From Lonsdalea populi (GTDB taxonomy: Bacteria > Pseudomonadota > Gammaproteobacteria > Enterobacterales > Enterobacteriaceae): 64,000 nucleotides of DNA. Location: NCBI RefSeq assembly GCF_015999465.1, contig NZ_CP065534.1, forward strand, positions 2,356,001 to 2,420,000, given 5' to 3'. Made by a program: the position numbers and the translations under genes. The notes beneath the pieces were generated by a model. The model was given only the letters and a program-made list of their open reading frames with translations, was not told where the DNA came from and made no database searches. Positions 21,517 through 43,306 of this stretch are shown here, in pieces; the stretch's first letter is position 1; each line of letters begins with the position of its first letter.

Positions 21517-21677
21517 AATTCTTATTTTCATGCCGCTTTGCGAATCCCTATGTAATTCAGATTCAATAAGTTAGCGTGAAAAGCCTTCCCGATGCATTTT
21601 CAGTTTACCCTCCGCATCGGGAGAATTTGGTGGTCAGATTTGGGGTCAAGTTGGTTCGATGACGGAGTGACCCCCAA

Positions 21678-22949
21678 ATGTCTCTTAACGACTCAAAAAT
21701 CCGCAACTTAAAACCATCCGCAAAACCCTTCAAAGTCTCCGATTCTCACGGTCTATACCTTTTAGTTAATCCAAGCGGTTCACGTCTCTGGTATCTCAAA
21801 TATCGTATCAATAGAAAAGAATCCCGCCTCGGCTTAGGTGCCTATCCCGGTGTATCTTTGGCCGATGCTCGTCAACAACGTGACGGAATCCGCAAATTGC
21901 TGGCGCAGAATATCAATCCAGCACAACAACGCTCTGTTGAGAGAGCCACTGCCTCACCAGAGAAAACCTTCAAATCAGTGGCGCTAAGTTGGCATAAAAG
22001 CAACAGAGCATGGTCGGAGAACCATGCAACCCGCCTGCTTGCCAGCATGAACAATCATATCTTCCCGATAATTGGACAACTGCCAGTCACAGAACTGAAA
22101 ACCCGCCATTTCATCGACCTGCTGAAAGGGATTGAGAAAAAAGGTCTGCTGGAAGTGGCGGCACGCACTCGGCAACATATGTGCAATATCATGCGCCATG
22201 CCGTGCACCAGGAGTTGATAGAGCATAATCCGGCAGCCAATCTGGACGGTATCATCACCCCGCCCGTTAAACGCCACTACCCTGCCCTTACGCTAGAAAA
22301 ACTACCGGAACTGTTGACTCGCATTGAGGATTACAAGCAAGGGCGAGAATTAACCCGTTTGGCGGTATCACTTACCCTGCTCCTTTTCATCCGCTCCAGC
22401 GAGTTGCGCTTTGCCCGTTGGTCTGAGATTGATTTCAGAAACAAAATCTGGATCATTCCAGCTACTCGTGAAGCCATCCCCGGAGTGCGTTATTCCGGGC
22501 GTGGTGCCAAAATGCGCGCGCCGCATATCGTTCCCCTCTCCCGTCAGTCCATCACTATTTTGAAACAGATACGGGAAATCTCAGGGCATCAGGAACTCAT
22601 ATTTCCCGGTGCTCATAATCCGTATAAGCCAATGTGCGAAAACACGGTCAACAAGGCTTTGCGCCTGATGGGTTATGACACAAAAGATGAAATCTGCGGT
22701 CACGGATTCCGGACAATGGCCTGTAGTGCCTTGATGGAATCTGGACTATGGGCACAGGATGCAGTTGAACGGCAAATGAGCCATCAAGAACGCAATAGCG
22801 TTCGAGCTGCTTACATCCATAAAGCAGAATATCTCGATGCTCGTAAAGCGATGATGCAATGGTGGTCGGATTATCTGGATATAAACCGGGAAGAATATGT
22901 TGCGCCATACATTTATGCTCAACAACATAAGACGGCTAGAGCTTCCTGA
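21678..22949 (+). CDS. int: P4-type tyrosine integrase of the conjugative element
   Basis: The 423-residue recombinase inserts and excises the element at tRNA-Asn. The N-terminal DUF4102 arm-binding domain covers about residues 1-90 (KVSDSHGLYLLVNPSGSRLWYLKY). The core-binding region follows, then the catalytic domain. Visible catalytic residues are R239 in FIRSSELRF, H342 and R345 in GHGFRTM, H369 in QMSHQERN, and the nucleophile Y379 in AAYIHKAEYLDAR. All are present, so it should be active. The gene points away from attL, as in most islands of this family. Confidence 0.93.
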   Translation: MSLNDSKIRNLKPSAKPFKVSDSHGLYLLVNPSGSRLWYLKYRINRKESRLGLGAYPGVSLADARQQRDGIRKLLAQNINPAQQRSVERATASPEKTFKSVALSWHKSNRAWSENHATRLLASMNNHIFPIIGQLPVTELKTRHFIDLLKGIEKKGLLEVAARTRQHMCNIMRHAVHQELIEHNPAANLDGIITPPVKRHYPALTLEKLPELLTRIEDYKQGRELTRLAVSLTLLLFIRSSELRFARWSEIDFRNKIWIIPATREAIPGVRYSGRGAKMRAPHIVPLSRQSITILKQIREISGHQELIFPGAHNPYKPMCENTVNKALRLMGYDTKDEICGHGFRTMACSALMESGLWAQDAVERQMSHQERNSVRAAYIHKAEYLDARKAMMQWWSDYLDINREEYVAPYIYAQQHKTARAS

Positions 22950-23082
22950 TCGATAACGCACCTAAGAGCAGATCCTGATAACAGGATCTGCTTTTCAGAC
23001 AGCAAGAAAATCTTGCCTCAGCATTTCACAAACAGTCGAGAAATATCAGTAAATTGCTCAGACTGGATACGTGAATGAAGGT

Positions 23083-23418
23083 CTATTGCGGGGTAATCAA
23101 CAACGTAGAATTAGGGTTACTTTTCTTATAACGATGGTACTGCAAGATTAGCGTTGCGAGATCCTCATCGACAGCATAAAAATACGCTTCCGGCACATCC
23201 AGCACCGCCGCAAATCGGCAAACCAGACCAAAATCCGGCGAACTGACTTCCCTTTCATACTGGCTTACGCGGGAACTCGACGTCTCTTCATCCAGTCCAG
23301 CGAGACAACCGAGCTCGACCTGTTTTAATCCTGCATTCACTCGCGCCAGTCTTAATCGTTTACCAATCACGGCATTACCTGCTTCGCAGATTAACATAAG
23401 CCGATTATCGCCGTTCAC
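23083..23418 (-). CDS. XRE-family regulator (copy A)
   Basis: The 111-residue protein has a Cro/CI-type helix-turn-helix (IGKRLRLARVNAGLKQVELGCLAGL then SRVSQYERE, about residues 18-57). The C-terminal tail is FYAVDEDLATLILQYH. It is a close paralogue of the gene just upstream at 23583. A GTG at 23418 with AGAGG upstream is the likely start; an internal ATG at 23397 lies at the same place as the paralogue's start. It probably controls the element's own genes. Its 3' half is also found as a relic at 1958-2115. Confidence 0.85.
   Translation of the reverse strand: MNGDNRLMLICEAGNAVIGKRLRLARVNAGLKQVELGCLAGLDEETSSSRVSQYEREVSSPDFGLVCRFAAVLDVPEAYFYAVDEDLATLILQYHRYKKSNPNSTLLITPQ
23402..23410. promoter_or_regulatory. 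Palindrome CGATTATCG before the ATG of XRE copy A
   Basis: The same 9-bp palindrome stands four bases before the equivalent ATG of copy B at 23902-23910. Because it was kept in both copies it may be an operator bound by these proteins. Confidence 0.45.
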
Positions 23419-23582
23419 GCTATGCCTCTCTTGAAGTGGTTCTTCACCCAGTGAATTTAAAGTTTATTTTTGATTATTTTAAACTCAAAAATGAAGATTT
23501 AATTCATTGAGAATAGGAATAATTAAATTTAGAAGGGTGAACGCACAGGAATTGAACATCATGACGCACTAGAACATCCACC

Positions 23583-23897
23583 TTACTGGGGTGTGATCAG
23601 TAGCGTGATGTTAGGGTTGGCTTTCTTGAAACGGTGATACTGTAAGATCAAGGTGGCGAGATCGTCATCAACAGCATAGAAATATGCTTCTGGAACATCC
23701 AGAACCGCCGCGAACCGAGAAACCAGCCCAAAATCTGGCGCACTGACTTCCCTTTCGTATTGGCTCACACGAGAGCTTGCCGTTTCCTCATCCAAACCAG
23801 CGAGGCAACCGAGCTCTGTCTGCTTTAATCCCATGTTGACTCGGGCTAGTCTTAATCGCTTACCAATCACAGTGTTATCCACGGTACTGATTAACAT
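23583..23897 (-). CDS. XRE-family regulator (copy B)
   Basis: This 104-residue protein shares most residues with copy A (for example GKRLRLARVN, GLDEETASSRVSQYEREV and RFAAVLDVPEAYFYAVDDD). The two arose by tandem duplication. The start is the ATG at 23897. It faces the Ner-like gene across a 146-base AT-rich divergent promoter region, which suggests a switch that sets the state of the element. No ribosome site of standard type is seen, so it may be translated from a very short leader. Confidence 0.85.
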   Translation of the reverse strand: MLISTVDNTVIGKRLRLARVNMGLKQTELGCLAGLDEETASSRVSQYEREVSAPDFGLVSRFAAVLDVPEAYFYAVDDDLATLILQYHRFKKANPNITLLITPQ

Positions 23898-23901
23898 AAA
23901 C

Positions 23902-23910
23902 CGATTATCG
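23902..23910. promoter_or_regulatory. Palindrome CGATTATCG before XRE copy B
   Basis: This is the same motif as at 23402-23410, placed identically relative to the ATG. It is a candidate operator for autoregulation. Confidence 0.45.
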
Positions 23911-24043
23911 CTTCTCTTAGCAAGCCCTTCTTAAAGGATTTCTTTTCTGGATAAATTATAACTTTATTTTTGGTGTTTTTTTCATCTATAATGAATAAAT
24001 AATTTACCAGGGGGAGTAAATCTTCAATCCAAAAGGGGGACGT

Positions 24044-24325
24044 ATGAACAGTGAACAACAGGAACAACAGGAACAACGAATAGACTGGCATCCTGCCGAT
24101 ATCATTGCAGCCTTGCGTAAACGGAAAACGACGTTAGCCGCCGTATCTCGTAAGGCAGGCCTTAGCTCATCAACGCTCTCAAATGCACTAATTCGACCTT
24201 GGCCGAAAGGTGAACGGCTTATAGCAGATGCGCTAGGCATACCTGCGAGTGAAATCTGGCCAAATCGTTATTTTGATTCACAAGGGCAGCGTATTCCCAG
24301 AGAAATTCGTCATAAAAGTGATTAG
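24044..24325 (+). CDS. Ner/Nlp-like DNA-binding protein
   Basis: The 93-residue product has a glutamine-rich N-terminus and then the Ner-family helix-turn-helix (WHPADIIAALRKRKTTLAAVSRKAGLSS, about residues 15-45) and the C-terminal signature PWPKGERLIADALGIPASEIWPNRY. Ner of phage Mu and Nlp/SfsB of E. coli are the model proteins. It is divergent from the XRE pair and may act as the opposite arm of the regulatory switch. GGGGGA lies four bases before the ATG. Confidence 0.9.
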   Translation: MNSEQQEQQEQRIDWHPADIIAALRKRKTTLAAVSRKAGLSSSTLSNALIRPWPKGERLIADALGIPASEIWPNRYFDSQGQRIPREIRHKSD

Positions 24326-24739
24326 ATCATTTACCGGTTTAAGCACCAACCATCAGGAAATAACATTCTGGTTTCCACTCGATTCAACCGTGTCACATCA
24401 TCAATTGGTTCGTGAATTACCTCGAACCAATTGATATGCAATGATTTATGATATTTTCATTCCTTTTTTTGAGACAGGTCTTTTGTAGAGTTGCTCTGAA
24501 TAAAATCTGTAACAAGTAGCATTGAAAATGACATGAGGAAGTTAGCCCGTTTGGTAATAGCACCCCAGTTCGAACATTTTTGTGACGGACAGCGAAAAGC
24601 AATTAATAACTTCTTCGTTATAACAACACCCCCTCACTAATCCTATTCCTCATTTTTAGAATCCTATCTATATGTCATAACTGCATAAAGGAGTTAAAGC
24701 ACCTATGCACATGTCACTTTCATATAAAGGAGATGAATC
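24326..24739. other. Non-coding stretch with a 13-bp inverted repeat
   Basis: ATCAATTGGTTCG at 24400-24412 and its exact complement at 24423-24435 make a hairpin about 75 bases after the ner-like gene. It may be a terminator or a protein site. The rest is AT-rich and holds no supported gene apart from the promoter of the next one. Confidence 0.5.
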
Positions 24740-25654
24740 ATGATAAAGGAAAAAAGAACCACTAATACCCTGAGTGAGAAATTTAGCTGGATCACAATAC
24801 CTGAAGCCATCGTTATAGCAACTAAAATGAGAAACGTACCGTTAACAGAAGCTAATATTTATCGCCATGCTTTATATGGAGACATCAACCTTTCAATTTA
24901 TTTCCAATCTCCAGTGGTTTTACGAAGGATAAAAATATCAAATACTAAAATAAAGCTAAAACCTGTTGAAAATAATCTAATTAACCGACTCTGCATTCTC
25001 GAAAAGAACTGCTTTCTTAATAACAGAAAATTAATCGTCATCACCGAGGGGAAGTATATTAATTTCACACAACAAGTAATTGATACAACTCTTATCGGCT
25101 ATGAATACGTTCTCGTTCAACGTTTATTAGCGAGATCTCTGGGTATTCCACTACCCGTAATCGGAGAAAATTACGTTAATTATGGTCTTACTGTCAATAT
25201 TGGCGACGATCACTTTCAAATGTTTGAGAAAATGAGGTATCGCGAAAGGATAAAACAGCAAACCATAAGACTTCCTAAAAATATCGCATCACATATTACT
25301 GAAAAAATCCCAAACCAAAAAAAAAACCATTATAGCCACAGAGAATATTTTCCAATTCATGATTTACCAAAGGATGCCTGTTTTGTCATCAAACATGCCG
25401 AACTTGAGAAATTAATTAGCTTGCCCGCCAAAAACGATACCTCTCAGCCCGCCTCAACACGTATATCCACGCCATTATCCAGACTGTTCTGGCTTGCCTG
25501 TAAAAACAATGAGTTTATCAGCCCATTAATCAGGCAACCTTATAAGCTTCTGTCCATCTTTGAACAGTGGGCATCAGACGAAGGCATGACCGATCGATTC
25601 AGTGGCGATACGTTAAAAACGGCGCTTGAGCGTGGTTCACCTACGTCCGCTTAG
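24740..25654 (+). CDS. Unknown protein of the element (304 residues)
   Basis: I do not recognise a named family. The protein starts MIKEKRTTNTLSEKFSWITI and has an N-terminal part that reads like an address-type motif (WITIPEAIVIATKMRNVPLTEANIYRHALYGDINLSIYF) often seen in element-borne proteins with a helix-turn-helix-like start. A mixed middle section follows, and the C-terminus is helical and well conserved in style (SRLFWLACKNNEFISPLIRQPYKLLSIFEQWA). There is no signal peptide or membrane segment. AAAGGAG precedes the ATG. It lies in the regulatory block before alpA, so a role in control or element maintenance is possible. The gene is AT-rich. Confidence 0.75.
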   Translation: MIKEKRTTNTLSEKFSWITIPEAIVIATKMRNVPLTEANIYRHALYGDINLSIYFQSPVVLRRIKISNTKIKLKPVENNLINRLCILEKNCFLNNRKLIVITEGKYINFTQQVIDTTLIGYEYVLVQRLLARSLGIPLPVIGENYVNYGLTVNIGDDHFQMFEKMRYRERIKQQTIRLPKNIASHITEKIPNQKKNHYSHREYFPIHDLPKDACFVIKHAELEKLISLPAKNDTSQPASTRISTPLSRLFWLACKNNEFISPLIRQPYKLLSIFEQWASDEGMTDRFSGDTLKTALERGSPTSA

Positions 25655-25694
25655 GCACCCAATTAAAATGACATTACACGCTTCAATCTAAAAA

Positions 25695-25728
25695 CCCGTA
25701 TTAAGGATTGTGGTGTCCGTAATACGGG
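25695..25728 (+). terminator. Hairpin after the unknown gene
   Basis: CCCGTATTA at 25695-25703 and its complement at 25720-25728 form a 9-bp stem 40 bases after the stop codon at 25654. There is only a short T-rich tail. Confidence 0.5.
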
Positions 25729-25807
25729 CTCTTCAACTTTCACTCCTTTCCTCACTGTGTTTTTTTGTCATCTCCGGGCAACTCCCATTTCTGCACTGGA
25801 GGTATTT

Positions 25808-26002
25808 ATGACATCTCATCAGTTATTACGTCTGAAACAAGTAGAAGTAAAAACCGGTCTGAAACGCTCACAAATCTACCTGTACATGAAAGAAGGTACC
25901 TTTCCCTCTTCAATAAAGATTGGGCCAGCCAGCGTCGCCTGGCTGGAATCTGAAATTGATGAATGGATTAACTTCAAATTAGCTAACCGCTTAACGCGCT
26001 GA
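25808..26002 (+). CDS. alpA: AlpA-family excision regulator
   Basis: The 64-residue protein begins MTSHQLLRLKQVEVKTGLKRSQIYLYMKEG, a MerR-like helix-turn-helix, and ends with GPASVAWLESEIDEWINFKL, the AlpA hallmark. AlpA proteins activate integrase and excision genes in P4-like elements. I chose the start at 25808 because GGAGG lies six bases upstream; the longer frame has no ribosome site. Confidence 0.92.
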   Translation: MTSHQLLRLKQVEVKTGLKRSQIYLYMKEGTFPSSIKIGPASVAWLESEIDEWINFKLANRLTR

Positions 26003-26018
26003 AGGGAGATACAGCATT

Positions 26019-26603
26019 ATGTTCCCCTCACTGAATTACGCGGTGTTAACAAACGCCCTTGCCGCGCTTAAGGAAGGCAATTTTCGTTATTGTGAAACGT
26101 TAGGATTCACATTCGACGAATTGAACGCTCTCAATCAGCTATCACTCGACGAACTGTTTATCGTCAGTCGGGCATCCGCGCAGTTTATGTCGATCACTGT
26201 TCGTCACGACGTTTTACAACAAATTCTGGCGTTGTCCCGCCAAGAGGCGCAACGCCAGCAACAGATTAATCGGGCCATCATATTGGGGGGATCTATTGCA
26301 CTCCTTAATCATTTTTTTGGCCTCACCTCGAATGAGGTCTGCACTCGCCGCAGGTTGCTGGGTGTCACCATCCCTTATGGCCGAACGCCTATCCCAGATG
26401 AAGTCGTCGATGCAGAAATTTGGCTGACATGGCAAAAGAAACGCACTGAAAACCTTGATACACCTGACGCACTAGAAGCCATGATGCAGGTCACTGAATC
26501 GTTGTCCTCTAGGGAAAAAGGGCCTTCCCTGACCGCCGTCTGGAACCGTATCACCCTTTGTGAGAAAGAAGCACTGAACAGGAGGACATCGCATGCCAGA
26601 TGA
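26019..26603 (+). CDS. DUF2857-family protein
   Basis: The 194-residue protein (MFPSLNYAVLTNALAALKEG) matches the DUF2857 family, which is common in integrative elements next to AlpA. It is mostly alpha-helical and has an FlhC-like look in the middle (AQRQQQINRAIILGGSIALLNHFFGLTSNEVCTRR). It follows alpA by 16 bases and overlaps the next gene by 11, so the three are one transcript. The function is unknown; a role in transcription control is likely. Confidence 0.82.
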   Translation: MFPSLNYAVLTNALAALKEGNFRYCETLGFTFDELNALNQLSLDELFIVSRASAQFMSITVRHDVLQQILALSRQEAQRQQQINRAIILGGSIALLNHFFGLTSNEVCTRRRLLGVTIPYGRTPIPDEVVDAEIWLTWQKKRTENLDTPDALEAMMQVTESLSSREKGPSLTAVWNRITLCEKEALNRRTSHAR

Positions 26604-26802
26604 GATCGATCGCGATCAGGAATTTAATGAGCAACGCCTGGAAGAAATGATTGAACAGAACCGTTTCAAGCCAGCAACTACGCCCTCATTACATTACTGC
26701 CGTTTGTGCGGTGAACCTATTCCAGAGAAGCGACGGCAAACGCTGCCAGGTGTGACAACCTGTACGGAATGCCAAACCATACTTGAGCGCCGTCAGCGCT
26801 GA
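26593..26802 (+). CDS. DksA/TraR-type zinc-finger protein
   Basis: The 69-residue protein has a four-cysteine zinc finger, CRLCGEPIPEKRRQTLPGVTTC with a second CxxC (TTCTECQ), preceded by a short helix. TraR-like proteins bind RNA polymerase and change transcription without DNA binding. The start overlaps the end of the DUF2857 gene. Confidence 0.88.
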   Translation: MPDEIDRDQEFNEQRLEEMIEQNRFKPATTPSLHYCRLCGEPIPEKRRQTLPGVTTCTECQTILERRQR

Positions 26803-27261
26803 TAGCAAGGTGACACTCGCGCAGAGGAATTATCTTCTCTGCACATTATTTATCACCATAATAAATACAGCTAATATCATTATCCATGAAATTTTAAATA
26901 AAAAACCGTCACCATTATCACTTATCTGTATTGGCTCTGACTGTGTTCTATGTTAGAACACGATCAAACCGGACAGTCGGTAACGAGCGAAAAGTGGACA
27001 TATTTGATTTTTTTACTTGTAGATATACTGGTAATAACTCTCAATGACTCATCAATGCTGACAAAATCCGAACAGAATCAATTTTAAGATCAGCTGTTCT
27101 CACCAAAATCTAAATATAGGAAGCAGATCAATTTCAGCTCGGATACTCAGTAGTAATGTATCTACCAATGATCTATCTAGCTAATGCTCTTCATTAGAAG
27201 TGAAATATCTCTATACGGAGCACGTTTCAGCTAATGAGAATTTAAAGTGATAAGGGGTCTC
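26803..27261. other. Boundary between regulatory block and ABC-3C cargo
   Basis: About 460 AT-rich bases with no supported gene. It holds the promoter of the three-gene system that follows. GCAGAG and CTCTGC around 26820-26843 make a small hairpin that may end the alpA transcript. Confidence 0.45.
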
Positions 27262-28578
27262 ATGGCAGTAGCTCCTCAAGTTTTTCCACACACTGCTATT
27301 TCTACGTGGAGTGGATTTGTCTATCAGGGCAAGCTGGCGCTGTATCATTGTCTGAAGATGATATCCTCGGACTATGAAGCGAACCGGGATTTGAAACTGC
27401 AGTTAGAAAGTCAGGATGACTTCGCGATTTTTCGTCAACAGCAATGCCTGTCCATGCATCAGGTCAAAGCGTACAAGGAGACGCGTTTTTCTGCCTACAG
27501 TGATGGCATCAAGACTCAAAGGGATAATGCGAGGCAGCGGGGAGTGCCACTCGCTTATTTCCATGTCGCACGTTCAGTAACGAATATTCCGGCAACGTTT
27601 GGGACTGACTATGGGCCAGTGAGATTTTATACTTACCCCATTCCTCCCGATGAAGCAGGGAATGTCACACAATCGTTTTGCCCTCTGAATCAAGTAGATA
27701 TATTTATTCGAAATGAACTCTCCACCCTGCTTGCTAATGTTGCAGGGCAACCCGCTTGGAAAAATTTTATTGTCGCGAATATTCAGAATACGCTGGAAGC
27801 AATAGTGAACTCAAAGGTCATTATGACCCACAGCAAGATACATGAGTCAGCTCGCCATCAGGCCGTAATCGCAGCCAGCGAATTCATCGATTTTTCAGAA
27901 CTATATGGTGTAATCGAAGCAGATGATTATGCTCCGTTTGAGAATGAGGCATTCTTCCTTAGCCGTCTGCAGATTGATATCGGCACATACTACCAGGAGT
28001 TTTGTGAACGCCAAGACAGCCTCTCCCAGGCAGCATGTCAAAAGTTAGATGACTATCTGGCTGCTATTACTTCGCTGAATGTTGAGGGAATGAAGGCATT
28101 CCTGCGAGCAACTATGCCGCATAAAAAGGGACGTTTTAAAACACTTAGTGAATTTAAGGATCAATCACTCGATCGTGATGCAATGCGACTTGGGATGTTT
28201 ACGATTTTCTGGAAACTAGTTCAGACTGCACGTAATGATGGTTCTGATGTCGCATTCTCGTGGCTAAATGACGGGCTTTTCTACTATCCGACAGGTATCC
28301 ACCATGCTGCAGAGCATCAGGAGAGTATCTGTCATGACATCATGCAACAGGCAATTAGTGAAGATGTGGAGTGTCTATTTGAGTGCGGCGCACTTATCAC
28401 TAGCGCCATAGACAGACCTTCAATCTCTGATGTAATCATAGGCATTGACGCTACTGAGGGAGTGGATGCTGCTGAACACGAATTACTGAGGGAAAACCGC
28501 ATCGGGAATTATAAGAAGGTGGCTATGATTTCTTTAAACAATGTACCTGAGAGTTTGAAAGATGCAGAACCTGATTGA
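27262..28578 (+). CDS. ABC-3C system effector-type protein with nuclease-like N-terminus
   Basis: This is the first of three overlapping genes that together look like an ABC-three-component conflict system. The N-terminal region has FVYQGKLALYHCLK, then ESQDDFAIF and HQVKAYKE. This is a PD-(D/E)xK-like pattern (Glu/Asp before and Q-x-K after), as in Cap4-like nucleases, at about residues 49-70. The C-terminal part of about 250 residues is the type usually named ABC-3C C-terminal domain and has no other function assigned. The ATG at 27262 with AAGGGG upstream was chosen over a GTG at 27247. By analogy, it would be released or activated by the ATPase partner to attack nucleic acid. Confidence 0.78.
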   Translation: MAVAPQVFPHTAISTWSGFVYQGKLALYHCLKMISSDYEANRDLKLQLESQDDFAIFRQQQCLSMHQVKAYKETRFSAYSDGIKTQRDNARQRGVPLAYFHVARSVTNIPATFGTDYGPVRFYTYPIPPDEAGNVTQSFCPLNQVDIFIRNELSTLLANVAGQPAWKNFIVANIQNTLEAIVNSKVIMTHSKIHESARHQAVIAASEFIDFSELYGVIEADDYAPFENEAFFLSRLQIDIGTYYQEFCERQDSLSQAACQKLDDYLAAITSLNVEGMKAFLRATMPHKKGRFKTLSEFKDQSLDRDAMRLGMFTIFWKLVQTARNDGSDVAFSWLNDGLFYYPTGIHHAAEHQESICHDIMQQAISEDVECLFECGALITSAIDRPSISDVIIGIDATEGVDAAEHELLRENRIGNYKKVAMISLNNVPESLKDAEPD

Positions 28579-29266
28579 ACAATTGTTGGAATTAGAAGGA
28601 TTGACGCGTAATCTCTCCACAGACTTGGCGTTATACGAATACAACAGTACTGGAAAGACAAATTATTGGCTGGTAATCCACGGCGAACCAATAATCACTC
28701 CTGAAATCCAGGCAGGATGGTTAAGTAAATGCAAAAATGCTACAGCCAATCCTGCTCTTGAGAAAAATATCAATTTATTGATTGTATGGAATACTGACAG
28801 CAGCAAAGTGCTCGCCAGTAAACGAGTTCACCATATAGAAGAAGACAGCTATTTCTTTAAAAAGCATGTACTTCCTTACACTACCGAAGAATTCGAAGCA
28901 CTACGTCAACAAATCGACATTCAGGGATTTGCAACAGTTTTTCGTGAATCAATTACTACTCCTAACACCTTTACTGAATATAAATCAAACCACCTTGAAG
29001 GAGGCTGGCAAAGCCTATTATATAGGCTTGCAATAAAGCTTCCATTTATCGCAGTTAATAGTTCGGGTAATTCCGATCTAGCCAGTCTCGAGCGAAATAT
29101 TCGGGAAAAAATCCAGCGTACAGCTAATCCTGGTGTACTGGTTGCAACAGATTCAGCTATTGACTCTCTTGCAAATCAGATCGCATCGCCGAATGTGCAG
29201 CCGGAAGATTTATTGACCTTCATGGATGAGAAACTGTCTGAGGCAGGCTATGAAAGTGATCGTTAA
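28562..29266 (+). CDS. ABC-3C middle component
   Basis: The 234-residue protein overlaps the gene before it by 17 bases and the gene after it by 17. It has YNSTGKTNYWLVIHGEP near residues 27-43 and GGWQSLLYRLAIKLPFIA near 142-160, which fit the small middle component found in ABC-3C gene sets. No catalytic motif is visible. It is likely an adaptor between the ATPase and the effector. Confidence 0.72.
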   Translation: MQNLIEQLLELEGLTRNLSTDLALYEYNSTGKTNYWLVIHGEPIITPEIQAGWLSKCKNATANPALEKNINLLIVWNTDSSKVLASKRVHHIEEDSYFFKKHVLPYTTEEFEALRQQIDIQGFATVFRESITTPNTFTEYKSNHLEGGWQSLLYRLAIKLPFIAVNSSGNSDLASLERNIREKIQRTANPGVLVATDSAIDSLANQIASPNVQPEDLLTFMDEKLSEAGYESDR

Positions 29267-31604
29267 GCGTCTAGAAGTGCATAACTTTAAAGTTTTTGAA
29301 AAGCTTGAGTTAACCCTTGAAAGTGATCATCTCGTAGTTCTTGATGGTCCCAACGGTTTCGGTAAATCATCTTTTTTTGACGCTATGGAACTCCTGTTGA
29401 CAGAAAAAATCCGTCGCTATATTGAGCTTGAAGAACTGACAGTGGATCGACGTAGCCTGAAAACAGGCTGCCCCTGGCTATTCAAGCAAGCAGGTGTAAA
29501 TGACTGGCTTTCAATTCGTGCGGAGATTGTAGTAGATGGTCAGAGCCATTTCCTTGAGAGAGCAGCCAGTAAAGCTGTACTAGACGAGCATAAAGGTGTA
29601 ACTGATTTAAGGATACCTCTTTATGAATTAGTAAACTTTAGCGCGGAACGGGTTGAAGTCATTTCACAGGAAGAAACTTATCTTTCTACCTTACTCGGTG
29701 AGCAGTATGAGCGCGATTTTGAATTATTCCATTATGTCGAGCAAGAAGGAAATACTCGGTTGTTAAAACAAAAGGAAAAAGACAGACAGGGTCAGATTGC
29801 ACACCTTTTCGATATTGGCGATATTCAGGAAAAAATTAATAACATTACACAGGCGTCGGCCAAAATCGGAAATTTGTGTAACCCTCAGAAAAAAAATGAA
29901 CTGAAACAACTTAAAGATAAATGGGAAACAGCTAAGCAGCAGTTGCTACCGGCAGGCAGTTCTGTCACATACGAAAGAATTATCGAAGTTACGGATCAGC
30001 CATGGGACCGTGATGTAGTAGAGTTTGATGTACAACAATTTGAACAGTGGCTATCAGCAGATGGAGAATTGTTTCGCCTCAGGCGTTTTGCAGAAAATTT
30101 TAAGCATTATAAAAGCCAACTATATAATAATGAATTGGTGAATAAACTCCTCCCCAAAAAGGAACTACAACAGCGTCTGTTAATGTTTTATCGTCCTCTT
30201 GAAAACATAGAAAAATGGGTTGCAGAGGTCGCTTGCTTTGATGCTGCACTAGCGATAAGTGACGCCTTCAAAGATATAATAAAGGCCATTAGCGAGGATC
30301 GCCTGTCGATCACTGATCCATTGGTGCCACTCCTTCCTGCCTCTATCACAGCAGAGGAATTTCAGCAACAGGTCGCCGGACTCAAACAACAGTTGACCAC
30401 CGCAGACAAAGTTCAGGAATGCCACGCGGAACTAATTCAGACACGTGAGCAACTGTTGAATGCATTCAGGGAGCATCAGACACATTGCGATTCTACAAAT
30501 ATTTGTCCGACATGCGGGCATCCTTGGCCAACGGTAGCAGCGCTTCTCGAAGGAATCGAAAGTCAGAGCAAATCACTTGAAACTTTAGCAGCTCAACAAA
30601 ATAATCAATTCTCACAAGCACTAGTAAGCTTCAGACGCAACTGGCAGGAGCCTATCGAACTTGCTCTGCAGGCCTGTCTGGAGCAAAATAAAGAGATCGT
30701 TGAACGTAAGCGCCAGCTCGCTGGCCTAACAGAAGAGCAAATTCAGTGGCTGGAAAATTATTATCAACAGCTTCAGACGGCAGGTATCAGTATTCAGGAT
30801 CTTCTGTCTGAGAATTTCGAGCCTGTAACGCAGCAAGCAACAGACGAACTAGAACGTCAGATTCGGGCAAGGTTTAAACCTTTCGACGATAGCTGCATTT
30901 TTGATGATTACGAGAAGATTTATCGTGAAATATTTAAAAACGATCCACAGGCTGTTGAACAAGTTACCCTCCAACGGCTTGAATTAAAAAAAGTCTATCT
31001 TGGACAACAGCATGCTATTGCGTCTTCTAAATTTATCTTGGAGTGTGAACAGCAGTATAACAAAGAAGATCTGCTGATCAAAAAAGCTACCAGATTTAAA
31101 GTGTATCTACGCAAACTCAAAAAAATATATGAAGACGAGAAAAGATTATATCTTGAATCCATAGTCAAAGAGATTGAGATCCTTTTTCATATCTATTCTG
31201 GCCGCCTTATGCAAAGTTATCAGCAAGGGCTAGGTATTTTTATAGAAAATGATGGTAATTCAATTGCTTTCAATGAAACACCTGGGCATGGGCATGATGC
31301 TGTCTTTTCCATGAGTTCGGGCCAGCTTTCAGCACTGGTCTTGTCATTTACATTAGCGCTGAACCAGCGATACGCGAAACACACTCTGTTGCTAGTAGAC
31401 GATCCTGTCCAGACGCTGGATGAAATCAATGTGGCTGGATTCATCGAGTTACTGCGTACCGAATTTCAAGACCGCCAGATAATCATGTCAACACATGAAG
31501 ATCGTATGTCTGCGTATTTCCGTTATAAATACAAGAAATTCGGCATGTCAGCAGGCAGAATCAATTTTATGGAACAAGCGCGCTTAGTCATTGACATACA
31601 GTGA
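29250..31604 (+). CDS. ABC-3C SMC/Rad50-like ATPase
   Basis: The 784-residue protein (start chosen at 29250, MKVIVKRLEVHNFKVFEKLEL) has Walker A GPNGFGKSS near residue 35, a long central region with a zinc-hook-like CPTCGHPWP near 419, the ABC signature SSGQLSALVLSF near 688, Walker B TLLLVDDPVQTLDE near 712 and the H-loop MSTHED. This is the layout of Rad50/SbcC-like ATPases that sense DNA ends or structures. With its two upstream neighbours it makes a complete operon that appears intact. Confidence 0.88.
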   Translation: MKVIVKRLEVHNFKVFEKLELTLESDHLVVLDGPNGFGKSSFFDAMELLLTEKIRRYIELEELTVDRRSLKTGCPWLFKQAGVNDWLSIRAEIVVDGQSHFLERAASKAVLDEHKGVTDLRIPLYELVNFSAERVEVISQEETYLSTLLGEQYERDFELFHYVEQEGNTRLLKQKEKDRQGQIAHLFDIGDIQEKINNITQASAKIGNLCNPQKKNELKQLKDKWETAKQQLLPAGSSVTYERIIEVTDQPWDRDVVEFDVQQFEQWLSADGELFRLRRFAENFKHYKSQLYNNELVNKLLPKKELQQRLLMFYRPLENIEKWVAEVACFDAALAISDAFKDIIKAISEDRLSITDPLVPLLPASITAEEFQQQVAGLKQQLTTADKVQECHAELIQTREQLLNAFREHQTHCDSTNICPTCGHPWPTVAALLEGIESQSKSLETLAAQQNNQFSQALVSFRRNWQEPIELALQACLEQNKEIVERKRQLAGLTEEQIQWLENYYQQLQTAGISIQDLLSENFEPVTQQATDELERQIRARFKPFDDSCIFDDYEKIYREIFKNDPQAVEQVTLQRLELKKVYLGQQHAIASSKFILECEQQYNKEDLLIKKATRFKVYLRKLKKIYEDEKRLYLESIVKEIEILFHIYSGRLMQSYQQGLGIFIENDGNSIAFNETPGHGHDAVFSMSSGQLSALVLSFTLALNQRYAKHTLLLVDDPVQTLDEINVAGFIELLRTEFQDRQIIMSTHEDRMSAYFRYKYKKFGMSAGRINFMEQARLVIDIQ

Positions 31605-32004
31605 GAGTAAGAGCCATCTTTTTTGAAGGTGGCCTTGCTTTGGTACTCCAACCTTCAACACAGCCTTGTAAACATCTTCTGATGTGGAGTAATTAAGACA
31701 TTGAGACTTAGTATTATTAATCACATAGGTTCATCCCGATTAAAAAGTGTTATTGCTAAAGCTGTTCTGACGTCCACCTCTTACATAGAGCCTCCCATAG
31801 TTCCTGCCTACGGCAACTACGAACGAGAAATGGACATTGTTCTCACCAAAACGAGGAGATTTCCTGAGGATTATAAGTTTTCTTATTGGCTATTTTATTC
31901 GGCACAACCTATTTCTGGTAAAATAAAATATTGCATCACACATTATGTGTTAAATTACAACTTAATTGGATATACACCCTCAACTTCACTAAATGAAACA
32001 CACT
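31605..32004. other. Stretch with no supported gene
   Basis: A plus-strand frame at 31701-32138 is open but has no recognisable family, no ribosome site, and runs over the end of the opposite-strand pseudogene. I do not call it a gene. Confidence 0.4.
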
Positions 32005-32664
32005 TTATTTTAAATATATTTTTTCAAGCCAGCCACCATTATGAAAACCTACCAGATAATTTATATAAGGCTCAATTTGTTCAAAAACCATACCTTCCTT
32101 TTGGGCTCTACTCAGATAAAAATATGGGTTTGGCCTGAATATAGTTTTAATTTCTCTCATTGCTTCAAAATGTACCCCATTCACCCTTCTTTTTTGATGT
32201 TCGTTTAAATATGTCCTATCCCCTGTATCGTACAACGTCCACCCTTGAACAGAAAAACCACGTTTCGCTAATATCCAATCAACCTGAAACTCCGCATCAT
32301 CTGGAGAAATAAAGAACCATTCAGAATCTCTTAGTGTATTAGGATATTTTATTGCTCCTCCAAAAACATTTCCATGATGAATATAAGATTAAATATCATT
32401 TAATTCTTTTTGCGAACATCCCCAAGTTGTTGCAGAGAGTTCATATATAGCATAAAGCTCTAAAAAAGGATTGTATGTTCTTCCTTCATTAAGACGAAGT
32501 TGTGGATGTTTCTTTGTGGTCAGCCCGATTTTACAAATAGATAAATCCCGAATATCTATTGCGATATATAGCCACGCATGTTCTAAAGTTGGGTATGCCA
32601 CATAATATTCATTTTGAGATGATATCTCTGCAAAAAACCTATTGGATATTCGTCCATCTGACAC
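32005..32664 (-). pseudogene. GIY-YIG/MUG113-type nuclease-like gene with one in-frame stop
   Basis: The first 91 residues (32664 down) contain AWLYIAIDIRDLSICKIGLTTKKHPQLRLNEGRTYNP, the pattern of T5orf172/MUG113 domains, a branch of the GIY-YIG nuclease fold. The frame hits TAA at 32389-32391 after KELNDI. Reading through, it continues in the same frame as SYIHHGNVFGGAIKYPNTL and runs to IYLK at 32005. A single change would therefore restore a 219-residue product. A GTG at 32664 is the probable start, with a poor ribosome site. It lies between the ABC-3C system and the transfer genes and may once have been a small defence or homing-type nuclease. Confidence 0.7.
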
Positions 32665-33211
32665 CTTGTAAAAAACAGCTCATAAATTCCAATACCATAT
32701 AGTACGGAAAAATAGGATTTATAATAAGGCCAATAAATTATATTTTATTATCCACTCAAGGTCAGGCCGAAAAAAAATTTATGATATTTATGAGCCTTCA
32801 CCCTGTAATTAAAATTTCAATTACTTGAAGAAAATAATTTATGGGAAATAATTTTCTTCACATATAAAACATATCCTTGAGCAGAAAAGCACCAGTTCAA
32901 ATCAAATCCAATACATCCTTTCGAAATAATTATCACACTACACATTTTCTCTCTCATTCCCTGTTTGATTTTATCATTTTCATCCTGAAGCTGATATCGC
33001 ACGCTAATCACGCCACCTTCCACTGGCGAGCTTTATGGACGTTTATTCGTCCGGGGCGAGTATTGCTCTTTAACAATGCGAATCGGGCTGTCACGCAACC
33101 ACAATTCAGGGTGCCGCTGAATGTTCTCGCTGACCCGTTGAAACCGGAATGCAGAATCGGGATGTGATCGATGTAGTTAACTCACCATTATTTTTTATTA
33201 AAGGAAATAGC
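32665..33211. other. Non-coding region ahead of the virB operon
   Basis: About 550 bases that include the likely promoter of the transfer operon. A stretch around 33055-33100 (GGCGAGTATTGCTCTTTAAC) resembles leaders often seen before gene blocks in enterobacterial integrative elements. A minus-strand frame at 32817-33023 is open but unsupported. Confidence 0.4.
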
Positions 33212-33433
33212 ATGAGAAAACCTACCTATCACGTGTTTGTCACGCAGGAAAGCCAACCCGATGCCAGCAGAGAAAAGAACACGTACTGGACAAAAGTCGG
33301 CGTGGCGTTCGCTCATAACAGCAAACCTGGATTGAACATCGTACTGACACCCGGTATTGCTGTCTCCGGTAAGCTAGTGCTCCTTGAGCCGAAAGACGAT
33401 AGCGACATACCGCAAGCCCCCCAGCACGATTAA
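33212..33433 (+). CDS. Small conserved protein ahead of virB1
   Basis: The 73-residue protein starts MRKPTYHVFVTQESQPDASREKNTYWTKVG, with AAAGGAAATAGC before the ATG, and ends with an acidic, proline-rich tail. I do not recognise a domain. It has the pattern of small single-stranded-DNA-related or regulatory proteins encoded before virB-type operons, but no function can be given. Confidence 0.6.
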   Translation: MRKPTYHVFVTQESQPDASREKNTYWTKVGVAFAHNSKPGLNIVLTPGIAVSGKLVLLEPKDDSDIPQAPQHD

Positions 33434-33506
33434 CACTCTCCTCTCCTTTTCTTTGCCACCGACTATCTGATAGCTACGTGTGGTTCGACTTTTTACCGAG
33501 GCAACC

Positions 33507-34172
33507 ATGCTTTCACCCACTGCTTTTCTGGCGGCGGTTATGCAATGTGCCGCCACTATTCACCCCTCCACCGCGTTTGATGTGGCTAAAGTGGAATCCA
33601 GCTTTAATCCTTATGCCGTCGCTGAAATTGTGCCGAAGGAAGAAAGAGCGCCCGATAGCGTAGGCGTCATTTCTCATCAGCCCACCAGCAAACAAACTGC
33701 CATCAACATCATCAAGCAGGTAGTCGCGAAAGGTCGCCGTTATTCGGTCGGTCTGATGCAAATCACCAGTACCAACTTCCGCCATTACGGCGTGACGGCC
33801 CATGACTTGTTAGACCCCTGCACTAATCTATCCGTTTTTGAACGCATCCTCACCGACTGCTACCAGCGAGGCGGCACGCTGAAAAGAGCGCTCAGTTGTT
33901 ACTATTCCGGCAATTTCGATACGGGTCAGCAGCCAGAATCCGCCTTTAACCAAACCAGTTATATCCAGCGTATTAGCTATGTGATCCCGTCTACGCGGGA
34001 AGCTCTCAAGCGCAGTACCACCAGCCAATCCACTTCAGAGATTCATTATCCGACCACCGTCCTGCGCGGTGAACTCACCGATAAATCCATACCGGTTTTG
34101 ACTTCCCTGCACTATCCCAACGCCATCCTTCGCGGCGATGTATCCATGCCTGTAATTAATGAGGAGCAATGA
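33507..34172 (+). CDS. virB1: VirB1-type lytic transglycosylase
   Basis: It locally opens peptidoglycan for assembly of the type IV secretion channel. The catalytic Glu is in AKVESSFNPYAV near residue 29. The rest of the SLT fold includes YSVGLMQITSTNF and LSCYYSGNF. I chose the ATG at 33507 (CGAGG upstream). The protein is 221 residues and lacks an obvious signal peptide, though its N-terminus (LSPTAFLAAVMQCAATIH) is hydrophobic. It is the first gene of the virB operon. Confidence 0.9.
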   Translation: MLSPTAFLAAVMQCAATIHPSTAFDVAKVESSFNPYAVAEIVPKEERAPDSVGVISHQPTSKQTAINIIKQVVAKGRRYSVGLMQITSTNFRHYGVTAHDLLDPCTNLSVFERILTDCYQRGGTLKRALSCYYSGNFDTGQQPESAFNQTSYIQRISYVIPSTREALKRSTTSQSTSEIHYPTTVLRGELTDKSIPVLTSLHYPNAILRGDVSMPVINEEQ

Positions 34173-34174
34173 CG

Positions 34175-34450
34175 ATGAAAAAACGTAAATACTGGCCTGC
34201 GTTTTCTTCCGTATTGATATCAAGCCAAACGCTGGCAGCAGGGAGCGGATTTAATAAAGCCAACGATACGCTGAGTAATACGTCCAGTGGTTTGCTCGGG
34301 CTGGCCGCCGTCACGATCACACTGGCAACCATGTGGGTGGGTTACAAGGTGCTGTTTGATGGTAAAAGTTTGCATGACATGCGCAACGTCATTATCGGAG
34401 CCATCCTGATTGTCGGTGCATCAGGCTTTGGTGCCTATTGGGCATCATAG
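34175..34450 (+). CDS. virB2: VirB2-type pilin precursor
   Basis: This small protein has a signal peptide ending near QTLAAG and two hydrophobic segments (LLGLAAVTITLATMWVGYKVLF and IIGAILIVGASGFGAYW), the pattern of VirB2 pilins that form the conjugative pilus. The ATG at 34175 has AGGAG eight bases upstream and overlaps the virB1 stop. It is the second gene of the operon. Confidence 0.88.
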   Translation: MKKRKYWPAFSSVLISSQTLAAGSGFNKANDTLSNTSSGLLGLAAVTITLATMWVGYKVLFDGKSLHDMRNVIIGAILIVGASGFGAYWAS

Positions 34451-34459
34451 GGGGAATCG

Positions 34460-37207
34460 ATGACCACCCTGAACAAAGCACTGACCCGCCCTGCCGCCAT
34501 TATGGGCATCCCTCTCGTCCCGTTCGTGATCGTCAGCGGGGCTATCGTCCTGCTGTCGGTCTATATCAGCTATTACCTCGCGTTGTTATTGATCCCAGCC
34601 TGGCTGGAAATGAAGGCAAAAGCTCGAACGGATATTCATTATTTCGGACTGCTGTGGCTGGCCTTTAAAACCCGTGGGCGATTTGTCACGGATCGCCATT
34701 TCGGTGCCAGAGCCCTGCTGGCAAGCCACTATGACGCCGTCGATGTTTCGGAGTTTACCGATAAGATGAAATTAAACGAGCGCATCACGCTGGATAAATA
34801 CATTCCCTACTCCTCCCACATTCACCCTCACATCATAAGAAATCGCGCCGGTGATTTAGTCGCTAGCTGGGAATTGGGCGGCACTGTGTTTGAATGTGAG
34901 GACGAACATCATCTGACATTGCTGGCAAGCCACCTCAACAACCTGATCCGCGCGTATGAAGGGCTACCGTTCACCTTCTATATTCACCGCATACGAGAGA
35001 AATATCAGGATGGCTTTAACGCCAGTTCGGGCATTCCCTTTTCGGATGAGGTCACAGAACGCTATTACCAGCCAATAAAAGAGAAGCCACTCTGGCGACA
35101 TCGGCTGTTTTTCAGCCTCTGTTATGCCCCTTTCTCCACGCTGGAGAAAAAAGTCATGAAGACGCAGGCCAACGTAAAAAGGAAAGCGGCTCTGGATGAT
35201 GCACTGAAAAGGATGCTGGAGCACCATGAAGCCATCCACACCGCCCTGTCGCGTTATGTGGCAATGCCATTAGGTACTTATGAGGAAAAAGGTCGGGTTT
35301 ACTCTTCGCAACTGGCTTTCTATCATCGCCTGATTACCGGCAAATGGCAGAACGTAGCGGTGACACGCACACCGTTTTATCACACACTCAGCACGCCGGA
35401 TGTGTTCTTCACTACCGATACCGCCGAATGTCAGACGGTCGGCGGTTTCCGCTTCTTCCGCAGTCTGGAAATTAAAGACTACTCACCGGAGACCTACACT
35501 GGCCTGCTCGATGCGCTGCTGTATGCCGAAAGCGAGTATGTGCTGACGCAGTCTTTTACCTGTATGGCACGGGATGAAGCGCAAAGTCATATCCGACTGG
35601 CGGAAAAACGGCTAAATTCAACCGACGATGACGCTATTTCACAGCGAGAGGAATTGATCGTCTTACGCGATTTGCTCCAGTCCGGGCATGTGTCTTGCGG
35701 CAAATATCATTTTTCCCTGTTGGTCTCCTCCACCAGCGCCGATCAGGTGGTCAAGGAAACCAATGCGCTGGCCCAGCCTTTTAACGATCTCGGCATCATG
35801 ACATCCCTGTCCACGCTGTCGTTACCTGCCGCCTATCTGGCTCAACTTCCCGGCGTCTATACGTTGCGGCCTAGACTGGTGGTAGTCAGTAGCCAGAACT
35901 ACGCAGATATGGGGAGTCTGCATAACTTCCATCCCCACAAACGCCACGGCAATCCGTGGGGTGAGGCTATCGCCATACTGAAATCTCCCGGTGGTGGCGG
36001 TTATTATCTGAACCTGCATGACAGTCAGGCAGGACGGAATGACTTCAATGAGAAAACGCCGGGGAATACCGCCATCATCGGTAAAACAGGTTCAGGAAAG
36101 ACCCTGCTGATGACAATGATGAAACAGTTGATGCAGAAGTACCGTAATCCGGCGACATTTCCCGCCTCTGCCACTCTCAAACGACTGACCACCGTTTACT
36201 TTGATAAAGACAGAGCAGCGGAGATGTCTATCCGCCAGATGGGCGGTCGCTACTTCCGTATCCGGACCGGTATTCCTACCGGATTCAACCCGTTTTCACT
36301 TGCGCCCACTCGACGGAATATCAGCTTTATCAAGCGACTGATCCGGATGCTGTGTCGTCGTGACGGTAAGCCACTCGATCCCCGCGATGAAGAGCGTATC
36401 AGCACTGCGGTGGATACCATTATGCTGGACTACCCGCCGGAATATCGCCGTTATGGTATTACCCGATTGCTGGAAGTGTTGCCGGAGCCACCGACCAAAG
36501 AGGCACGGACCAACGGTCTGCGTATACGCCTGAAACAGTGGGCGCAGGGCGGTGAATTCGGCTGGGTGTTCGATAACGAGGAGGACACGTTCAACATCAG
36601 CAATATTGATAACTTTGGTATCGATGGCACAGAATTCTTGGATGACGACGACATACGCGGGCCGATCACCTTTTACCTGTTGTACCGCATCACCAGCCTG
36701 CTGGATGGTCGCCGACTGGTGATGTTCATGGATGAGTTCTGGAAATGGTTGGCTGATGTCGAGTTTTCTAAATTCTCCCTCAATATGCTCAAGGTGATCC
36801 GTAAACTGAACGGCATTTTTATCCCCGCTACCCAGTCGCCTGATGAAATCGTCAGGCATCCCATCGCTCCGGCGATTATTGAGCAGTGCAGTACTCAAAT
36901 TTTTCTCGCCAATCCCAAGGCCAACCATGCGGATTACGTGGAGAAGATGAAAGTCCCAGAAAGCGTTTACGACATGGTTCGTAATCTTGATCCAAGCGAG
37001 CACTATATGGTTGTCCTGAAAACACCACTGCGTGCCGGTGAAACTCGCCCGTTTGTCGCCATGGCAAGAATGGATTTATCGGGCCTCGGGAACATCACCA
37101 AAATCCTGAGCGGCAGCGAAGACAACCTGAAAATATTTGATGCCATTTATCAGGAAGGCATGCCACCCACCGACTGGAAAGAAACGTTCCTTAATCAGGC
37201 TATCTGA
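34460..37207 (+). CDS. virB4: VirB3-VirB4 fusion, T4SS ATPase
   Basis: The first 100 or so residues (MTTLNKALTRPAAIMGIPLV then two membrane segments and WLEMKAKARTDIHYFGLLWL) are a VirB3 protein. They are joined in one frame to a VirB4/CagE ATPase. Walker A GKTGSGKTLLM is near residue 540 and Walker B LVMFMDEFWKW near 752. VirB4 powers pilus assembly and substrate transfer and contacts VirB3 in the membrane. The total of 915 residues fits the sum of the two families. Fusions of this kind are known in other systems. The gene starts 9 bases after virB2. Confidence 0.92.
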   Translation: MTTLNKALTRPAAIMGIPLVPFVIVSGAIVLLSVYISYYLALLLIPAWLEMKAKARTDIHYFGLLWLAFKTRGRFVTDRHFGARALLASHYDAVDVSEFTDKMKLNERITLDKYIPYSSHIHPHIIRNRAGDLVASWELGGTVFECEDEHHLTLLASHLNNLIRAYEGLPFTFYIHRIREKYQDGFNASSGIPFSDEVTERYYQPIKEKPLWRHRLFFSLCYAPFSTLEKKVMKTQANVKRKAALDDALKRMLEHHEAIHTALSRYVAMPLGTYEEKGRVYSSQLAFYHRLITGKWQNVAVTRTPFYHTLSTPDVFFTTDTAECQTVGGFRFFRSLEIKDYSPETYTGLLDALLYAESEYVLTQSFTCMARDEAQSHIRLAEKRLNSTDDDAISQREELIVLRDLLQSGHVSCGKYHFSLLVSSTSADQVVKETNALAQPFNDLGIMTSLSTLSLPAAYLAQLPGVYTLRPRLVVVSSQNYADMGSLHNFHPHKRHGNPWGEAIAILKSPGGGGYYLNLHDSQAGRNDFNEKTPGNTAIIGKTGSGKTLLMTMMKQLMQKYRNPATFPASATLKRLTTVYFDKDRAAEMSIRQMGGRYFRIRTGIPTGFNPFSLAPTRRNISFIKRLIRMLCRRDGKPLDPRDEERISTAVDTIMLDYPPEYRRYGITRLLEVLPEPPTKEARTNGLRIRLKQWAQGGEFGWVFDNEEDTFNISNIDNFGIDGTEFLDDDDIRGPITFYLLYRITSLLDGRRLVMFMDEFWKWLADVEFSKFSLNMLKVIRKLNGIFIPATQSPDEIVRHPIAPAIIEQCSTQIFLANPKANHADYVEKMKVPESVYDMVRNLDPSEHYMVVLKTPLRAGETRPFVAMARMDLSGLGNITKILSGSEDNLKIFDAIYQEGMPPTDWKETFLNQAI

Positions 37208-37230
37208 TATTCACCTCGGAGGTTATCACC

Positions 37231-37947: not shown

Positions 37948-37957
37948 GAGGGTAAGA

Positions 37958-38182: not shown

Positions 38183-38193
38183 AGGGGTAATCT

Positions 38194-39234: not shown

Positions 39235-39321
39235 TCTCCTCCTAGCGTAGTCTTTCCACCGCGTGCCGTGGCAACCGCCATCGGTACGGCATTTCTGTCT
39301 TCGACAAACACAGGAATCAAT

Positions 39322-43263: not shown

Positions 43264-43306
43264 AAAATAGCCAAATCATCTGTTATTTCCAATAAAGGTA
43301 TTTGAT

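What the first reader, a model, noticed from the sequence alone, without database searches (positions are those of the whole stretch)
27262..31604. Intact three-gene ABC-3C conflict system with a nuclease-like effector
Three overlapping genes encode a protein with a Cap4-like ED...QxK pattern, a small middle component and a Rad50-like ATPase with zinc hook. ABC-3C systems were predicted from comparative genomics and few have been tested. This effector type carried on a conjugative element is a good candidate for an anti-phage or anti-plasmid system.
Basis: partly seen in the sequence, partly recalled or inferred. Interest (0 to 1): 0.75.

Follow-up and report, generated by a model that had tools for sequence, protein, structure and literature searches.

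The report
Lamassu (ABC-3C) defence operon on ICE
Three overlapping genes carried by a mobile conjugative element look like an intact member of the known Lamassu family, a DNA-sensing immune system that probably cuts DNA and kills or cripples the cell when phage or plasmid DNA is detected; the type is already known, and this copy is a mosaic whose close relatives travel on other kinds of mobile element.

Summary
Three intact, overlapping + strand genes (27262-28578, 28562-29266, 29250-31604) match the parts of a type II Lamassu (= ABC-3C) system: LmuA (Cap4-type nuclease plus CTD1), LmuC (MComp1) and LmuB (Rad50/SMC-like ATPase with CPxCG hook). The nuclease call rests on a below-cutoff Pfam hit, a profile-profile match and invariant D53/Q67/K69; no fold could be predicted (server busy). 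The cassette is cargo in a slot of a ~34.5 kb conjugative element at tRNA-Asn; in 8 related loci fetched, the slot is empty in 3 and holds other DNA in 5. Copies ~91% identical occur in 3 of 5426 E. coli genomes; the two examined lie beside ssrA. Lamassu/DdmABC is well studied, so this is a new member of a known kind. Most likely mechanism (inferred): abortive DNA cleavage triggered by foreign DNA structures.

The parts
27262..28578 (+). lmuA: effector, N-terminal Cap4-type (PD-(D/E)xK-like) nuclease domain + CTD1
   Evidence: PF20276 1.3e-28, PF14130 1.9e-4 (below cut-off), PADLOC LmuA 1.2e-19; D53, Q67, K69 invariant in 12 of 12 rows
28562..29266 (+). lmuC: middle component, MComp1 family
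   Evidence: PF20289 9.8e-13; 14-row alignment
29250..31604 (+). lmuB: Rad50/SMC-like ATPase with zinc hook CPTCG (residues 419-423)
   Evidence: PADLOC LmuB 1.3e-61, SMC_N 6e-19; Walker A, hook, signature and Walker B residues invariant in 12 of 12 rows; solved relatives found by sequence are Rad50, SMC and PtuA among others
26803..32923 (.). variable cargo slot of the conjugative element that holds the cassette
   Evidence: backbone homology stops at 26802-26995 and resumes at 32899-32964 in 8 of 8 related loci fetched; 176-195 bp between them in 3, 2.0-4.2 kb of other DNA in 5
21496..55975 (.). integrative conjugative element bounded by 25-nt direct repeats at the 3' end of tRNA-Asn
   Evidence: repeats 21496-21520 and 55951-55975, 92% identical; tRNA-Asn 21441-21516
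21678..22949 (+). tyrosine integrase
   Evidence: Pfam Arm-DNA-bind_3, Phage_int_M, Phage_integrase
33480..46143 (+). VirB-type conjugation genes (VirB1-like transglycosylase, VirB3-VirB4 fusion, VirB6, VirB8, VirB9, VirB10, VirB11, coupling ATPase)
   Evidence: Pfam hits SLT, VirB3 + CagE_TrbE_VirB, TrbL, VirB8, CagX, TrbI, T2SSE, T4SS-DNA_transf

Best explanation
It is an intact type II Lamassu (ABC-3C) defence operon, lmuA-lmuC-lmuB. LmuB is the sensor: a Rad50-like ATPase head with coiled coils joined by a zinc hook, which binds DNA ends or hairpin-like structures made during phage or plasmid replication. LmuC and the CTD1 domain of LmuA hold the nuclease inactive in the complex. When LmuB engages the trigger, LmuA is released, assembles into an active oligomer and cuts DNA without discrimination, so the cell aborts the infection or loses the plasmid. 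Shown here: gene order, domains, conserved motifs, co-occurrence, mobile location and mosaic site patterns. Inferred from V. cholerae DdmABC and other Lamassu work: sensing, release, tetramerisation and abortive outcome.
For: All three proteins hit the matching models. An LmuA search and an LmuB search each hit 10 of 295 genomes, and they are the same 10. LmuA D53/Q67/K69 are invariant in 12 of 12 rows, and D52/D53/Q67/K69 in 14 of 14 of a second, overlapping set. Profile-profile match of the LmuA N-terminus to 7 Cap4-family proteins: probability 89%, E 2e-6, 65 columns, with the acidic pair and QVK in register; the one control, the same profile against LmuC, gives 0.2%. LmuB Walker A (GPNG-x-GK), CPxCG, signature S-x-S-x-G-Q and DDPxQ are invariant in 12 of 12 rows. 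Found as mobile cargo on an ICE, beside ssrA with an integrase and among phage genes (L036). Mechanism from the literature: PMC10586767 (passages and section 9), PMC12409362 (passages).
Against: The PF14130 match is below Pfam's cut-off and covers only 61 of 200 positions. No solved structure of a Lamassu LmuA or LmuC was found by sequence or profile. The fold could not be predicted: the server was busy at 17 of 17 tries. No activity data exist. Nothing here shows what triggers it.
Confidence: 0.87

Rival explanations
1. A rival about role, not identity: the operon serves mainly the conjugative element by removing competing plasmids or mobile elements, rather than protecting the host from phages. 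An ICE is chromosomal most of its life and so largely invisible to its own system.
For: It is carried in a cargo slot of an ICE. PMC12409362 (passages) reports that DdmABC makes plasmid carriage costly and argues that ICEs are probably invisible to it. Relatives also lie on other integrating elements.
Against: Lamassu members are also reported to stop phages (same source). One close copy lies among phage genes (L036); another is in the viral collection but its neighbours were not examined (L037). Location alone cannot separate the two roles.
Confidence: 0.4
2. The N-terminal domain of LmuA is a degraded or repurposed nuclease fold and the system acts by another route, for instance DNA binding only.
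For: Cap4 match below cut-off and short. The position aligned with the invariant Glu (E52) of the Cap4-family proteins is Glu in 6 and Asp in 8 of the 14 LmuA rows, so it is acidic but not fixed.
Against: D53, Q67 and K69 are invariant across 12 rows down to about 20% identity and align with the invariant Asp and Q-x-K of the Cap4-family proteins.
Confidence: 0.06
3. The cassette is a genomic passenger that no longer works in this host.
For: Several relatives are broken: lmuC is split in E. coli A26 (stop at codon 111 of 235) and, by annotation only, in A3; lmuB is in two ORFs in L037 and L038.
Against: All three window genes are open, with intact motifs and overlapping junctions.
Confidence: 0.07

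Closest known systems
Lamassu type II / ABC-3C systems (LmuA-LmuC-LmuB, Cap4-effector form)
   Same: Gene order effector - middle component - SMC-like ATPase; CTD1 and MComp1 are Pfam families named for ABC-3C; PADLOC LmuA and LmuB models match.
   Different: No architectural difference found. Nuclease match short; LmuB 784 aa, against about 650 aa given in PMC10586767.
V. cholerae DdmABC
   Different: DdmB is reported to carry DUF6521; the window's middle protein matches MComp1 (PF20289), and the only other Pfam hit up to E = 1 is irrelevant. DdmABC lies on VSP-II. The DdmABC sequence itself was not compared here.
Cap4 (CBASS effector)
   Same: Nuclease domain with acidic residues and Q-x-K in register with Cap4-family proteins.
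   Different: The C-terminal part is CTD1. No cyclase appeared among the 30 window proteins scanned with Pfam besides the three (not all ORFs of the window).
Rad50 / SMC / PtuA ATPases
   Same: The LmuB profile finds Rad50, PtuA and SMC chains in the PDB.
   Different: The position of the Glu that follows the Walker B Asp in SMC (its catalytic role is recalled) is Asp (D718) in 12 of 12 LmuB rows.

Membership tests
Lamassu type II / ABC-3C | Three-gene operon: effector, small middle component, SMC/Rad50-like ATPase | tested here: met
   order, overlaps; family models
Lamassu type II / ABC-3C | Effector with a family-specific C-terminal docking domain | tested here: met
   PF20276 CTD1, 100.7 bits vs cut-off 25; the docking role is from literature
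Lamassu type II / ABC-3C | Middle component of a named ABC-3C family | tested here: met
   PF20289 MComp1, 48.2 bits vs cut-off 27.3
Lamassu type II / ABC-3C | LmuB with Walker A, signature, Walker B and (in many) CPxCG zinc hook | tested here: met
   12 of 12 rows; residues checked
Lamassu type II / ABC-3C | Genetic linkage of effector and ATPase across genomes | tested here: met
   10 of 295 genomes for each query, the same 10 (LmuB at E <= 1e-30, at most 3 candidates scored per genome)
Lamassu type II / ABC-3C | Phage or plasmid restriction | not testable with these tools
   needs cloning and challenge
Cap4 nuclease domain | Pfam PF14130 at its cut-off | tested here: not met
   22.2 bits vs 26.2, 2 distant LmuA relatives do pass (G255; G112 only with neighbouring stretches), while the window's own and G048's do not
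Cap4 nuclease domain | Conserved acidic residues and Q-x-K in register with Cap4-family proteins | tested here: met
   one control comparison
Cap4 nuclease domain | Restriction-endonuclease-like fold | not tested
   structure server busy at every try (17 tries, first, last)
V. cholerae DdmABC type (DUF6521 middle component) | Middle protein with DUF6521 | tested here: not met
   only MComp1 and one irrelevant weak hit (VAD1-2, E 0.16) in a Pfam scan to E = 1; that DdmB has DUF6521 is from PMC12409362

The most novel reading that the evidence does not exclude
The cassette shows modular exchange inside one operon: the nuclease end of LmuA (about the first 200 residues) and the tip of LmuB follow a lineage different from that of LmuC and most of LmuB, while two LmuC/LmuB lineages 74-81% identical in DNA both go with nearly the same effector gene (85-91%). 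If this holds up, Lamassu sensors of the CTD1/MComp1 type change recognition while the effector is kept or swapped by homologous recombination between ICEs, ssrA islands and prophages, and this MComp1 sensor may answer to a trigger different from that of DdmABC.
Probability: 0.35. Interest if true: 0.5.

Novelty: new member of a known kind. Interest (0 to 1): 0.3.

Why it matters
It adds an intact, mobile CTD1/MComp1 Lamassu with close natural relatives (LmuA 86-92% identical over full length) in several enterobacterial genera including E. coli, on three kinds of vehicle seen here (ICE, ssrA island, phage-like contig). The natural mosaics give ready-made pairs to ask which part sets the trigger. 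An ICE that carries an anti-plasmid or anti-phage weapon bears on competition between mobile elements. The system class itself is already described and structurally studied.

Tried and rejected
Considered and rejected: CBASS Cap4 effector (C-terminal part is CTD1); Gabija, Septu, AriAB or MADS (weaker ATPase matches; proteins 1 and 2 matched none of their partner models there up to E = 1); Wadjet (no Wadjet model among the hits shown, but for protein 3 only 25 of 50 families were shown); chance ORFs (family scores, linkage and conservation speak against this). Frequency on plasmids and phages: no megablast match on plasmids; tblastn of LmuA found 60 plasmid records, all under 60% identity and 1 covering 80% of the query, and no phage record. 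PDB searches by sequence and profile found no Lamassu LmuA or LmuC; the scores returned there are chance-level (best: cysteine desulfurase E 0.077, a PTS protein E 0.12, SNAP-25 E 0.16).

Rows dropped before counts: the LmuA alignment A3 uses 12 rows. A2 uses 14 rows, made before L036-L049 were fetched or read. The LmuB alignment A4 uses 12 rows. It leaves out L011 (runs off its contig), L037 and L038 (lmuB in two ORFs), L040/L042 and the genome-search loci. The Cap4 set A5 uses 7 of the 17 places; left out are L073 (from its printed start near-identical to L072), L076 (short), L084 and L081 (the window-type LmuA), L077 and L080 (distant LmuA), and L082, L083, L085, L086 (below cut-off). The slot comparison uses 8 places from 7 of the 52 genomes that matched the DUF2857 gene, taken from among the best matches. 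In one search, 15 of 201 E. coli records were listed and read. The E. coli A3 locus was not fetched.
Full report
What is there. The three genes are present as described, on the + strand, open throughout and overlapping by 17 bases at both junctions. The first starts at ATG 27262, or possibly GTG 27247; the third starts at ATG 29250 within the overlap. The system has 42.7% G+C against 47.6% for the window.

What the proteins are. Protein 1 (438 aa) carries CTD1 of ABC-3C systems (PF20276, 100.7 bits, cut-off 25) and a sub-threshold Cap4 nuclease match at residues 15-78 (22.2 bits, cut-off 26.2). PADLOC names it LmuA, 1.2e-19. Protein 2 (234 aa) is MComp1 of ABC-3C (PF20289, 48.2 bits, cut-off 27.3). 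Protein 3 (784 aa) has SMC_N/AAA_23 matches and PADLOC LmuB at 1.3e-61. In NCBIfam none of the hits shown reached its cut-off (for protein 3, 25 of 48 shown). In short, LmuA-LmuC-LmuB, a type II Lamassu.

Is the effector a nuclease? In the 12-row alignment down to about 20% identity, D53, Q67 and K69 are invariant and D52 nearly so; in an overlapping 14-row set all four are invariant, and residue 49 is Glu in 6 and Asp in 8 rows. Seven Cap4-family proteins from other genomes share an invariant Glu, Asp and Q-x-K. Profile-profile comparison aligns the two sets with the acidic residues and QVK in register, probability 89%, E 2e-6 over 65 columns; the one control, the same LmuA profile against LmuC, gives 0.2%. 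In the genomes searched with PF14130 itself, 2 distant LmuA relatives pass its cut-off, one of them only with neighbouring stretches counted, and the window's own protein does not. This makes a Cap4-type domain likely. The fold remains unpredicted, since the server was busy at all 17 tries (last).

LmuB. Walker A (GPNG-x-GK), the CPxCG hook, the signature residues S687, S689, G691 and Q692, and DDPxQ are invariant in 12 of 12 rows. Where SMC has a Glu after the Walker B Asp, these proteins have Asp (aligned with 1e69); that this Glu is catalytic is recalled. A review (PMC10586767, section 9) reports a Glu-to-Gln change in the C-terminal Walker B of LmuB generally, and infers slow or no hydrolysis. 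Here the residue is Asp, with an invariant Gln three further on, so slow hydrolysis is plausible but only inferred. The profile's best PDB relatives are Rad50, PtuA and SMC.

Linkage and spread. Searching 295 genomes of the family, LmuA hits 10 and LmuB (E <= 1e-30) hits the same 10. Of the 7 distant LmuA hits, the short stretch fetched also encodes a LmuC relative in 7 of 7 and the start of LmuB in 5 of 7. None of the 3 other genomes of the window's own genus in that sample has LmuA. A partial copy (86%) also lies on a short contig of a metagenome bin labelled Clostridia (L014), which may be a binning error.

Vehicle. The window's cassette lies in an integrative conjugative element at tRNA-Asn, with 25-nt direct repeats at 21496-21520 and 55951-55975 (92% identical), an integrase, and VirB3/4, 6, 8, 9, 10, 11 and coupling-protein genes. 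The relaxase was not identified with confidence: 46140-46904 matches Replic_Relax below cut-off. Eight related loci, from 7 of the 52 genomes that matched the DUF2857 gene next to the slot, show where the backbone stops (26802-26995) and resumes (32899-32964). Three have 176-195 bp there and five have 2.0-4.2 kb of other DNA. One of those five encodes an OLD-like ATPase with TOPRIM domain; a second that was scanned gave no Pfam hit; the other three were not scanned. Four of the 15 E. coli records listed also join the two flanking genes within about 1.55 kb, where the window has about 7.6 kb. The cassette is therefore cargo in a variable slot. In two of the three E. coli genomes (A26, PapM-32-1; A3 not examined) and in G227 it sits instead beside ssrA and an integrase. 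In L036 it sits among phage genes (tape measure and head closure on one side, tail fibre on the other).

Mosaic structure. Against G227, lmuA is 91% identical in DNA, lmuC 96%, the first half of lmuB 98% and the second half 93%. Against Edaphovirga, lmuA is 91% while lmuC and lmuB are 77-80%. Quartet counts with window, G227, E. coli and Edaphovirga, as sites grouping the window with Edaphovirga against sites grouping it with G227: first half of lmuA 32 to 2; second half of lmuA 1 to 5; lmuC 2 to 14; first half of lmuB 4 to 25; second half of lmuB 13 to 13. With L036 in place of Edaphovirga the counts are 29 to 8, 0 to 4, 1 to 13, 5 to 31 and 12 to 15. A third quartet (window, Edaphovirga, G227, L036) is indecisive in the first half of lmuA (11, 7, 4) and strong for the two-lineage split in lmuC and lmuB (121, 171 and 164 sites). 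Listing the sites puts the switch near 27870-28018, inside lmuA at about residues 203-253, and a second switch near 31350, so the last ~250 bases of lmuB again side with Edaphovirga. Rahnella gives the same first switch. The nuclease end of the effector thus seems to have been exchanged separately from most of the sensor. These counts have no formal test of recombination behind them.

How it most likely works. By analogy with Lamassu/DdmABC, LmuB senses foreign or replication-linked DNA structures, and the effector is released, forms a tetramer and cuts DNA, aborting infection or penalising plasmids (PMC12409362, passages including its addendum; PMC10586767, passages). None of these steps was tested for this copy.

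What is known already. ABC-3C operons were later filed as Lamassu type II, and DdmABC is described as the best studied Lamassu (same sources). DdmB is reported to carry DUF6521, whereas this middle protein is MComp1. So it is a sister form within a known kind, not a new kind. The searches (ABC-3C; Lamassu; 20 of 23 listed; Lamassu with integrative and conjugative elements; 15 of 20 listed) returned listings in which I saw no title on this exact cassette. I read passages of only four papers (PMC10586767, PMC12799240, PMC12904381, PMC12409362), and the structure papers are not held, so I make no claim that it is unpublished.

Against my reading. The Cap4 match is weak by Pfam's own rule, no solved Lamassu LmuA was found by sequence, no fold model was obtained, and one E. 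coli copy examined (A26), a second by annotation (A3) and two viral-collection copies (L037, L038) carry split genes. The last point says that the system is often lost; it does not say that this copy is dead.

Noticed in passing
window 48465-50937 (+): A second defence-like pair on the same element: SIR2-domain protein followed by HerA-type ATPase; PADLOC SIR2 7e-208 and HerA 6.7e-175.
   Followed up: partly
window 54526-55641 (+): DUF2971 protein with PADLOC candidate-defence match PDC-S31, 5.5e-23; just inside the right end of the element.
   Followed up: no
window 52914-54017 (-): Protein with a below-cut-off match to a restriction-endonuclease-like domain (MTES_1575); no PADLOC match up to E 0.001.
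   Followed up: no
window 55951-57400: Beyond the right att repeat lies a short integrase-like ORF (56123-56590) and a stretch 70% alike to the end of the element's integrase gene, so probably remains of another element in tandem.
   Followed up: partly
window 23083-23897 (-): Two tandem genes that look like HTH regulators by eye (not scanned), 77% identical over 300 nt.
   Followed up: no
L009 16335-17038; L037 1713-4088; L038 4290-6631: Relatives with lmuC or lmuB split into two ORFs, a sign of repeated loss.
   Followed up: partly
L063 5706-8018, L062 12539-14580, L064 10899-14509, L065 12514-14633, L066 5734-9969: Other cargo in the same slot of related elements, one an OLD-like ATPase with TOPRIM domain: a possible defence hotspot; three of the five were not scanned.
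   Followed up: partly
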